From Ferrimonas sp. YFM (GTDB lineage Bacteria; Pseudomonadota; Gammaproteobacteria; Enterobacterales; Shewanellaceae), in contig NZ_AP027368.1 of NCBI RefSeq assembly GCF_030296015.1, positions 1,922,001 through 1,986,000 of the forward strand: 64,000 nt of DNA. The letters are read 5' to 3'. Of this stretch, positions 2,642 through 6,026 are shown one piece after another (positions within the stretch are counted from its first letter, which is position 1; each line of letters begins with the position of its first letter). Below the pieces are notes generated by a model. It was not told the origin of the DNA. It searched no databases and saw only the letters and a list, made by a program, of their open reading frames with translations. The translations under genes and the position numbers were made by a program.

Positions 2642-2713
2642 CAAGTCAATCAACTACGCGCTGAAGTTGACCCGTTTTAGTGGACACCAAAATCGTTAGA
2701 TTGAGGTGTCACA

Positions 2714-3049
2714 ATGCCTGCCTACAAGACAGGAAAACGAACCCAGCAGTACAGTGTAGAGTTCAAGGTAAAAGCGGTGACTTGGTCACACCTTCCTCAT
2801 CGTTCAGTAAAGGAAGTAGCCCAAGCTCTGGACATTCATCCGTTCATGTTGTCTCGTTGGCGCAAAGAGTATCGAGACGGCAAATGGGGCATGACAAAAA
2901 AGACTAAAAAGCAGCCAGATCAGCTTTCCAAAAGTGATGAAATCAGCCAACTCAAGCGGCGTCTTGCTGAGTTAGAGCTGGAGAATGATCTGCTAAAAAA
3001 GTGGCAACGGTTTCAAGCCGAGGAACAGAGGAATCGTTCCGATTCGTAG
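2714..3049 (+). CDS. IS3-family transposase OrfA
   Basis: 111 residues with an N-terminal helix-turn-helix (Transposase_8/InsE type: QYSVEFKVKAVTW, SVKEVAQALDIHPFMLSRW) and a C-terminal leucine-zipper-like helix (ISQLKRRLAELELENDLLKK). OrfA binds the element ends and supplies the N-terminal part of the OrfAB fusion transposase. The slippery heptamer A AAA AAG at 2995-3001 is in the right frame to shift ribosomes by -1 into OrfB. The frame is intact. Confidence 0.92.
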   Translation: MPAYKTGKRTQQYSVEFKVKAVTWSHLPHRSVKEVAQALDIHPFMLSRWRKEYRDGKWGMTKKTKKQPDQLSKSDEISQLKRRLAELELENDLLKKWQRFQAEEQRNRSDS

Positions 3050-3888
3050 CGCGCTATCAGGGTAAAATCCGACTATCGAGATTATGCCAGTTTGTCGGCG
3101 TTTCACGGTCAGGTTTCTATGCCTGGAAGAAGCGTCAGCCCAGCCAACGCGCCCAAACTGATAGTGTCCTGAGCAGAGAGATTCAGCGGCTTTTCCGTTT
3201 GTCCAAAGAGCGCTACGGCAGCCCTCGAATTCATGCCCAGTTGAAGCAGAAAGGCATTAGCGTGGCTCGAAAGCGAGTGGCTAGGCTAATGCGTGAACTT
3301 GGCCTTAGGGCGCGTTCTGTGAGGGTTTACCGTCAAATGAATAAGCGGCGGCAAACTTTGAAGGCAACAGAAAACCTGAGGCTGACTAGTGACGCCCCAA
3401 CTGCTGTCAATCAGCAATGGTCCGGCGACGTTACCTACTTAAAGCACGGACGGAAATGGTACTACCTGGCAGTGATTATCGACCTGTACTCCAGAAAGGT
3501 TGTTGGTTGGTCATTCAGCGATAACCGGACGTCAAAATTGACCGAAGGTGCCTTGGTGAAAGCGCTACGTACGCGGCGCCCGAAAGAGGGCTTACTGTTC
3601 CATTCTGACCGAGGTATTGAGTACCTGAATGAAAACCTACAGGGTTACTACAAGCGTCATGGAATCAGACACAGCTTGAACCGAGCTGGTTGCTGTACTG
3701 ACAACGCCGAGGTGGAGTCATTTTTCCATACATTGAAAGGCGAAATGTTCCAGGGAGCACGGTTCCGAGATCATTGGAAGTTGAGAGACGAACTGGCTAA
3801 CTATATTGACCAGTTCTATAACCGTCGACGTTTACACTCGAGCTTGGGCTACCAAAGTCCACACCAGTTCGAGAGACTCGCGGCATAA
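3001..3888 (+). CDS. IS3-family transposase OrfB (DDE integrase domain)
   Basis: This frame overlaps the end of OrfA by 49 bp in the -1 frame and is most likely made as an OrfAB fusion through the slippery site at 2995-3001. It contains an HTH_21-like region (SKERYGSPRIHAQLKQKGI) and a retroviral-integrase-like core: D in WSGDVTYLKHG, D in LLFHSDRGIEYL, and E in CTDNAEVESFFHTLK, which make up the DDE triad. The C-terminus NRRRLHSSLGYQSP is typical. All catalytic residues are present and no stop interrupts it. Confidence 0.93.
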   Translation: MATVSSRGTEESFRFVARYQGKIRLSRLCQFVGVSRSGFYAWKKRQPSQRAQTDSVLSREIQRLFRLSKERYGSPRIHAQLKQKGISVARKRVARLMRELGLRARSVRVYRQMNKRRQTLKATENLRLTSDAPTAVNQQWSGDVTYLKHGRKWYYLAVIIDLYSRKVVGWSFSDNRTSKLTEGALVKALRTRRPKEGLLFHSDRGIEYLNENLQGYYKRHGIRHSLNRAGCCTDNAEVESFFHTLKGEMFQGARFRDHWKLRDELANYIDQFYNRRRLHSSLGYQSPHQFERLAA

Positions 3889-3978
3889 CAAACCAGTGTC
3901 CACTTTATCGGGTCAGGATCACGCCTACGGCGCCGGACGCAGCAAAGCTGCGCCGGTTATTGAGGCGTTAAGTGACCC

Positions 3979-4446: not shown

Positions 4447-4503
4447 ACTTAACAATCACAGGCAAGCGACGCCAAAAAGCGGCGCGCCTGTTGTAAGCGT
4501 TGA
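4447..4503 (+). other. attC site 2 (target of the IS1111 element)
   Basis: ACTTAAC (4447-4453) fits RYYYAAC. The middle folds as CAGGC(aa)GCG(a)CGCC against GGCGCGCCTG around an AAAAA loop, and the right end reads AAGCGTTGA (4495-4503), like the AAGCGTTAG end of many short attC sites. The last bases of R' do not fully fit GTTRRRY, either in the interrupted site or when joined to the sequence after the IS (GTTGATG). The spacing and the position directly after a cassette gene support the call. Confidence 0.7.
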
Positions 4504-4767
4504 TATGATTCCCCCTGTCAATAGGCACAGACTTGTCCATGCCGGGCCCCAAAAGGCCGGCTTGGACACCCTGGTGAGAGACCTTTGGCAAGTCAATGTT
4601 CGGCGGTTGACCTTGCTGATATTCGCGGGTTTGGTTATCCGCATTACTTGTTTGCGCCGCTGGAGCCTTGCCTCATTCTATGTGCGCGCATGTAAACGCC
4701 TAACGCCGTCGAGGGTTGCTCTCACCGCTGCCGCCGGTCTGCATCACCAGGATGGTTTTCCAGATTA
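4504..4767 (-). ncRNA. Candidate bridge RNA region of the IS1111 element
   Basis: This is the 264-nt non-coding end downstream of the transposase. IS110-family elements encode a bridge RNA in a non-coding end, and in IS1111-type members it is in the end downstream of the transposase. A hairpin is visible: TGTCCATGCCGG (about 4534-4545) against CCGGCTTGGACA. On the minus strand the region reads GGCGTTAGGC (4707-4698), which is the consensus R' core of attC, the element's target. I infer that this word is part of a target-binding loop; the RNA ends are not determined. Confidence 0.5.
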
Positions 4768-5895
4768 TCAGCCTATGTGGACACGTCGCTCCGGTTCAAA
4801 ACGCTGAGCGATGTCCCACAGGTAGCCCGTGAGCTCTCTGGCCACGGCGGTGACCACTTTGTTGTACTCCTTGCCTCGTGCTTGCAACCGCCGGAAGCGG
4901 GCACACAAGCGCAGTTGTACCTCCCAGGAGCGTTGTTGCAGCTTGTGTGAGTGGTACTGCTGACGTATCTGCATTTCTCGGGAGACTTTGGGGCTAAAGC
5001 GATAGGCCCAGGCGGCTTCAATGAGGATGCGCCGAGCGTGGGTATTGCCACATTTGGTGATGTTCCCGCGCCTTTCCCTAGAACCACTTGAACGTTCACT
5101 GGGGGTTAGCCCTACGAAGTTCATGAGCTGCCTGGGGTTGGTGAAACGCCGCAGGTCGCCAAGTTCCGCCATCAGGGTGATGGCCGACAGGAAGCGGATG
5201 CCTCGCAGCGCCGTGAGTTGCTGTACCAAGGGGTACCAGCGCCAGGATTCGGCCAGGGTCTCCATTTCGAGTTCGAGGCGTTGCAGGCGCTCGTAACGCT
5301 CGGTGACGGTGTGAATATAGTCCTGAAAGGTTATCTTCTGTGCTGGTTCGGAGAAGTGGATGTCAGCCAAGTGGCGCTTATAGGCGTCGGTCCAGTTTTG
5401 TCGACCACTGCAAGGGTGGCCATTGCGCAGTAGAAACGATTTGAGCCGCTGACGAGCCTGGCGGAGGTCAAGCATGGCATCCTCGCGACAGCGAATGAGA
5501 TCGCGAATGGCCTCGTCTCTGGCGTCGGGTATGTATATGGGGGCAATGTCTCCCGAACGAGCCAGGCGTGCCAAGGTGCACGCGTCGCGTTTGTCGGTCT
5601 TCACTTTATCGCCAGGAGCTCTTGGGATGAGAGCAGGTGCAATGACCCAGCAGTCGATATCGCGCTTATTGAGATGGCGGTAGAGCCAGAAGCCGCAAGG
5701 GCCGGCTTCATAGACAACACAGAGTTTATTGGCCTTGGTCGCCTGCTGTTTCAGCAGCTTGTCGAAGGCCCTAATGTTGGTGGGAACGGTGCCGTAGTAG
5801 CGAACGGTGTCACCCATCGAATCGTAAATCAAAGCGACATCAGTGGTTTCCTTGTGCACATCCAGTCCGACGAAAAGTGTGTTAGCTTTAATCAT
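4768..5895 (-). CDS. IS110/IS1111-family transposase (DEDD)
   Basis: 375 residues from the ATG at 5895, which has AGGAGG at 5906-5901; the open frame extends further upstream but without a better ribosome site. The N-terminal RuvC-like DEDD domain shows D in FVGLDVHKETTDVAL, E in VVYEAGPCGFWL and D/D in KTDKRDACTLARLA. The C-terminal Transposase_20 domain has LTALRGIRFLSAITLMAELGD and the serine-containing GLTPSERSSGSRERRG. These enzymes act with a bridge RNA that pairs with target and donor DNA. The frame is complete. Confidence 0.93.
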   Translation of the reverse strand: MIKANTLFVGLDVHKETTDVALIYDSMGDTVRYYGTVPTNIRAFDKLLKQQATKANKLCVVYEAGPCGFWLYRHLNKRDIDCWVIAPALIPRAPGDKVKTDKRDACTLARLARSGDIAPIYIPDARDEAIRDLIRCREDAMLDLRQARQRLKSFLLRNGHPCSGRQNWTDAYKRHLADIHFSEPAQKITFQDYIHTVTERYERLQRLELEMETLAESWRWYPLVQQLTALRGIRFLSAITLMAELGDLRRFTNPRQLMNFVGLTPSERSSGSRERRGNITKCGNTHARRILIEAAWAYRFSPKVSREMQIRQQYHSHKLQQRSWEVQLRLCARFRRLQARGKEYNKVVTAVARELTGYLWDIAQRFEPERRVHIG

Positions 5896-6026
5896 GTCGA
5901 CCTCCTGTTGTGTTTGATTGCGTGATACAACAAACAGTGTGGCTCTGGTTTTACTAACCCACGATAAAACGCAGGAGGTCGACCTTTGCACAGGGAATCA
6001 TGATGTCTAGGTGCATGGAGGTAGCA

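What the first reader, a model, noticed from the sequence alone, without database searches (positions are those of the whole stretch)
4504..4767. Candidate bridge RNA of an IS1111-type element carries its attC target core
The non-coding end downstream of the IS110/IS1111 transposase reads GGCGTTAGGC on the minus strand (4707-4698), the consensus R' core of attC sites. The element sits exactly at such a site. IS110-family elements use bridge RNAs with target and donor loops, so this word is a good candidate for part of the target loop, set in a region with a strong hairpin at 4534-4565. It would explain attC preference of this IS group by RNA guidance.
Basis: partly seen in the sequence, partly recalled or inferred. 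Interest (0 to 1): 0.75.

Follow-up and report, generated by a model that had tools for sequence, protein, structure and literature searches.

The report
Guide RNA of attC-targeting insertion sequence
A small jumping gene in a marine bacterium (Ferrimonas) carries, just after its transposase gene, a predicted guide RNA whose two target words match the integron recombination site it inserts into; this is a new, well-behaved member of a mechanism published in 2024.

Summary
GGCGTTAGGC lies at 4707-4698 (minus) in the non-coding end of an IS1111-type element (4501-6007, transposase 4768-5895 minus) that interrupts an attC site exactly in its R' core. A covariance model built only from ~48%-identical relatives finds one place in the window, 4733-4584 minus, E 1.3e-10. 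The conserved fold puts the word on the 5' strand of a 10x10 internal loop, with a second guide (CACATAGA) on the opposite strand. attC-inserting relatives keep the word. Equally distant relatives with the same RNA but other targets carry different words there that match their own sites (0 of 20,000 permutations as good); the second guide tracks the left flank (19 of 19). So the word most likely is a target guide.

The mechanism is not new: Siddiquee et al. 2024 (PMC11187229) showed seekRNA guidance for IS1111 elements including the attC-targeting ISKpn4 and ISPst6. Transcription of this copy is untested.

The parts
4501..6007 (-). IS1111-type insertion sequence, about 1507 bp, inserted in an attC R' core (one base, A, at the junction is ambiguous)
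   Evidence: comparison with three other copies in the same genome and about 70 relatives
4768..5895 (-). DEDD transposase gene, 375 aa, GL-P----SG motif present (GLTPSERSSG)
4505..4518 (.). subterminal inverted repeat at the element's right end (transposase sense)
   Evidence: ATGATTCCCCCTGT
5990..6001 (.). subterminal inverted repeat at the element's left end
   Evidence: ACAGGGAATCAT
4447..4500 (+). attC part beside the element's right end, from R'' (ACTTAAC) to the R' half GCGT
6008..6014 (+). other half of the interrupted R' core (TAGGTGC)
4584..4733 (-). predicted seekRNA / bridge RNA
   Evidence: only hit of model R1 in the window, 42.6 bits, E 1.3e-10, full length; conserved fold
4671..4714 (-). 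target loop: stem CCUCG/UGAGG, 10x10 internal loop, apical stem GCGU/GCGC
4700..4709 (-). guide 1 (5' loop strand ACGGCGUUAG), pairs with the top strand of the target (CTAACGC)
4676..4685 (-). guide 2 (3' loop strand GCACAUAGAA), same sense as the target's left flank (NTA), then GA as in the element's left end (GAC)
4616..4622 (-). probable donor guide AUAUCAG, equal to the right end ATATCA joined to the first G of the left end
   Evidence: co-varies with the end sequence in relatives; role inferred
4516..4521 (-). TTGACA at the right end; in a circular intermediate it would sit 17 bp before CATCAT (CATAAT in most relatives)
   Evidence: junction promoter inferred

Best explanation
The element is a member of the IS1111-attC group. 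Its downstream non-coding region encodes a seekRNA (bridge RNA) of about 150 nt. An internal loop of this RNA holds two target guides. Guide 1 (GGCGUUAG) pairs with the top strand of the attC R' core (CTAACGC). Guide 2 (CAUAG) pairs with the bottom strand of the left half. Together with the transposase they place the element between NTA and ACGC of R' in one orientation, and the GGCG part distinguishes R' (GCGTTA) from R'' (TTGTTA). Shown here by sequence comparison: ends, target, RNA homology, covarying fold, guide positions, and guide-target co-variation across relatives. Inferred: that this copy is transcribed and active, the pairing itself, and the donor-guide and junction-promoter roles.
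For: A model from clade B only finds the RNA in the window with E 1.3e-10 and in all 14 clade-A loci searched. Clade B stems: 18 of 27 pairs with compensatory change, 0/500 shuffles; clade A: 98.3% of cells paired, the apical target stem and a donor-side stem each with a compensatory pair. All 49 attC insertions have TA at the left junction and nearly all ACGCC or ACGCT at the right. Guide 1 matches the own target group better than swapped groups, 0/20,000 permutations; e.g. L101 guide UUCGACUA with site CTA|GTCGA, L105 guide UUCCACUA with site CTA|GTGGA. The guide 2 base before UA agrees with the left flank in 19/19 non-attC and 26/43 attC insertions, against 7.9 and 17.3 by shuffling. The order of the guides (top-strand match 5' of bottom-strand match) is that published for IS1111. 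Experimental proof of the mechanism in ISKpn4, ISPst6 and ISEc11: PMC11187229.
Against: No RNA sequencing was available, so transcription is unproven for this copy. The 151-nt RNA is not more stable than shuffled sequence (z +0.53). In clade A most stem pairs never vary, so covariation there rests on two pairs. The permutation tests ignore phylogeny. This copy's own site (ACGCTT rather than ACGCC) leaves guide 1 with a G-T wobble just outside GCGUUAG, and guide 2 (CAUA) has one mismatch to its left flank (CCTA).
Confidence: 0.94

Rival explanations
1. The word is a conserved structural or protein-binding part of the RNA, or of the IS end, and resembles attC by coincidence; the transposase itself recognises the attC.
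For: GGCGTTA is nearly invariant in all attC-inserting relatives, which alone does not separate guide from structure.
Against: Relatives with the same RNA architecture and about 48% protein identity, but other targets, have different words at this loop position that match their own sites.
Confidence: 0.03
2. The word is a captured remnant of an attC or gene cassette in the IS end, without function in targeting.
For: It is a perfect R' consensus and the element lives in cassette arrays.
Against: It is conserved across clades at 48% protein identity inside a covarying RNA and replaced by other, site-matching words in non-attC relatives.
Confidence: 0.01
3. The RNA is a guide in the family, but this particular copy is decaying and inactive.
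For: This copy's guide 2 region (CAUAGAAUG) differs slightly from most relatives (CCUAGACUG).
Against: The transposase is open, four near-identical copies sit in the same genome, all at attC R' cores, and Ferrimonas sediminicola shares the UAGAAUG variant.
Confidence: 0.05

Closest known systems
ISKpn4 and ISPst6 (IS1111-attC) seekRNA, Siddiquee et al. 2024, PMC11187229
   Same: IS1111 transposase, downstream non-coding region, attC target, top-strand match 5' of bottom-strand match in the RNA, insertion in one end of attC
   Different: Different element and host; their letters were not available here, so identity to them was not measured. The RNA of this element is predicted, theirs was sequenced.
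ISPa25 (attC, diverged transposase), same paper
   Same: Same target words kept with a transposase only 46% identical to ISKpn4; mirrors clades A and B here (about 48%)
   Different: Its seekRNA is predicted only; its relation to clades A and B was not determined
IS621 bridge RNA (IS110 group), Durrant et al. 2024, PMC11208160
   Same: Internal loop with two guides for the two target strands and a second, donor-recognising part
   Different: RNA lies upstream of the recombinase there, guide order is reversed, target is not attC, long subterminal repeats absent
ISEc11 / ISXne4 natural re-direction, PMC11187229
   Same: Same scaffold with different target words matching different targets
   Different: Here seen across many lineages and for both guides, with attC and non-attC members

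Membership tests
IS1111 family | DEDD transposase with Transposase_20 C-terminal domain and GL-P----S(T)G motif | tested here: met
   PF01548 and PF02371, GLTPSERSSG; DEDD residues not mapped one by one
IS1111 family | subterminal inverted repeats of 7-17 bp | tested here: met
   ACAGGGAATCAT / ATGATTCCCcCTGT with one extra base; also found in relatives
IS1111 family | longer non-coding region downstream of tnp | tested here: met
   267 bases downstream (4501-4767) against 112 upstream (5896-6007)
IS1111-attC group | insertion at a fixed point and orientation of attC | tested here: met
   this copy, three other copies in the genome and clade A and B relatives with both ends
IS1111 seekRNA / bridge RNA | RNA with matches to both target strands, top-strand match 5' of bottom-strand match | tested here: met
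   searches compared with the text
[quoted passage not shown]
   needs RNA sequencing
IS110-type (IS621) bridge RNA | RNA in the end upstream of tnp | tested here: not met
   RNA model hit is downstream of tnp
Rfam families | match to a curated RNA family | tested here: not met
   no family near its threshold

The most novel reading that the evidence does not exclude
IS1111 seekRNAs also carry a donor guide, as bridge RNAs of IS621 do: a word (AUAUCAG here, AUGAGAG in other lineages) that changes together with the last four bases of the element's right end; and guide 2 reads on from the target's NTA into the element's own left end (GAC), as expected for pairing after strand exchange.
Probability: 0.55. 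Interest if true: 0.4.

Novelty: new member of a known kind. Interest (0 to 1): 0.33.

Why it matters
It supports, from evolution alone, that attC targeting by IS1111 elements is written in RNA, over elements whose transposases share under half of their residues. The related guides and targets collected here form a natural experiment showing which guide bases matter, useful for programming IS1111 recombinases and for predicting which integron cassettes such elements will interrupt. The principle itself is published.

Tried and rejected
Rfam scan of the element: no bridge-RNA family matched. Thermodynamic stability alone gave no signal (z +0.53). A search of plasmids with the clade-A RNA found nothing; the clade-B RNA found nine records, one in a Klebsiella NDM-1 plasmid. 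Attempts to find ISKpn4 itself by annotation in plasmids or E. coli genomes did not succeed. Tetu and Holmes 2008 is not held. A simple attC scan to count free GTTA and GTTG R' cores in the genome was too insensitive, so the prediction that GTTG sites are avoided stays untested beyond the absence of such insertions (0 of 49). Considered and rejected: hairpin 4535-4567 as part of the target loop.

Full report
What is there. Window 4501-6007 is an IS1111-type insertion sequence read on the minus strand. Its transposase (4768-5895, 375 aa) matches PF01548 and PF02371 and NCBIfam's 'IS110 family RNA-guided transposase'. The genome holds four copies at 98-100% protein identity, and the nearest named relative is in Ferrimonas sediminicola (91%), which genome search places in the same genus (by the shared contig length and coordinates). 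Comparing copies at different sites fixes the ends: in transposase sense every copy reads NTA|GACATCATG at the left and CATATCA|ACGC at the right. The joined flanks give an attC-like inverted repeat with R'' ACTTAAC and R' GCGTTAGGT, and an uninterrupted homologue exists in another genome of the genus. So the element does sit exactly in an R' core.

The word. GGCGTTAGGC is present once exactly in 64 kb, 60 bases after the transposase stop. It shares GCGTTAGG with the element's own site.

The RNA. I collected relatives at 70-91% identity (clade A), at 46-49% and in attC (clade B), and at 44-49% but not in attC (clade C). The RNA region was aligned separately for A and B. In clade A the consensus fold is a stem CCUCG/UGAGG, a 10x10 internal loop with RSGGCGUUAR on the 5' strand and mostly GCNCNUAGAM on the 3' strand, and an apical stem whose fourth pair is GC, AU, UG or UA. 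In clade B the stem flanking the loop (GUGGCAC/GUGCCAC), the apical stem and the donor-side stems show 18 of 27 pairs with compensatory changes; no shuffle of 500 reached the observed covariation and sliding the partners destroys it. A covariance model from clade B alone hits the window once, 4733-4584 minus, over its full length, E 1.3e-10, all 14 clade-A loci searched, and 5 of 16 clade-C loci at E below 0.001.

Is the word a guide? In attC-inserting relatives the core GGCGTTA[AG]G is invariant but for one base in L077. Since the target is invariant too, that alone proves little. Clade C is the control. There the same loop carries other words and the elements insert elsewhere: L081 CACACUAG at CTA|GTGT, L101 UUCGACUA at CTA|GTCGA, L105 UUCCACUA at CTA|GTGGA, L088 AGAUACUA at ATA|GTATCT, L099 AUACG at GCGTAT, L079 GUACG at GCGTAC, L100 CAACG at GCGTTG. 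No permutation of the target groups out of 20,000 matched as well as the true pairing. The second guide follows the left flank: the base before TA agrees in 19 of 19 non-attC insertions (7.9 expected by shuffling) and 26 of 43 attC insertions (17.3 expected, p 0.002). These tests ignore relatedness, but close pairs (L101/L105; L079/L099/L100) change guide and target together, which relatedness does not explain.

How it works. The transposase and its RNA read both strands of R': guide 1 the top strand across the junction, guide 2 the bottom strand on the left. The order, top-strand match first, is the one published for IS1111 and the reverse of IS110 (PMC11187229). GGCG in guide 1 explains why R' (GCGTTA) and not R'' (TTGTTA) is used. 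All 49 attC insertions have GTTA, none GTTG, as the A in the guide predicts, although the background of available sites was not measured.

Further features, inferred. A word on the donor side of the RNA, AUAUCAG, equals the element's right end ATATCA joined to the first G of its left end. It follows the end in relatives: ends in ATCA have UAUCAG in 17 of 17, ends in GAGA have UGAGAG in 9 of 11, ends in ACCA have UACCAG in 4 of 15 and UAUCAG, which a G-U pair would tolerate, in 10. Durrant et al. noted potential donor-binding nucleotides in IS1111 RNAs. TTGACA at the right end would stand 17 bp from CATCAT in a circle, CATAAT in most relatives, a junction promoter like the one named Pjunc in ISEc11 (title of Prosseda et al. 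2006, in the reference list of PMC11187229).

Tree. Clades A and B are each fully supported and fall together with one non-attC lineage (L088, L103) at an unresolved fork, so one or two origins of attC targeting remain possible.

Relation to the literature. attC targeting by IS1111 elements (Tetu and Holmes 2008; Post and Hall 2009, cited in PMC11187229) and its guidance by a seekRNA in ISKpn4 and ISPst6, with the same words kept in ISPa25, are known. Natural and experimental re-direction was shown for ISEc11 and ISXne4. What is added here is a further member in Ferrimonas and a wide comparative confirmation. I therefore score it as a new member of a known kind.

Noticed in passing
window 2655-3915: An IS3-like element (two overlapping frames, 2714-3049 and 3001-3888) appears inserted inside the neighbouring attC, between an R''-like GCCTAACAAG (about 2636) and the R' GCGTTAAGT at about 3965. 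Read by eye only.
   Followed up: no
L077 (Klebsiella pneumoniae plasmid NZ_CP095763.1), 1815-3300: A clade-B attC-targeting element sits at the end of the arr-3 cassette near blaNDM-1; its guide 1 has one change (GGTGTTAGG), yet its target is ordinary ACGCC.
   Followed up: partly
L045 and L047, right junctions: Right junction reads CCA|GACGCC instead of CCA|ACGCC, an extra G as if part of the left end GAC had stayed behind.
   Followed up: no
G000 (own genome): Fifteen further, distantly related IS110-family transposase matches (25-38% identity) sit in the same genome; the integron integrase lies at 2959655, next to two copies of this element, about 1.03 Mb from the window copy.
   Followed up: partly
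window 4535-4567 and relatives: A hairpin 3' of the RNA is kept in several clade-A relatives with quite different sequence (for example AGTGTCCTTACCGG..CCGGTAAGGACACT), so it may be functional, perhaps the RNA's 3' boundary.
   Followed up: no
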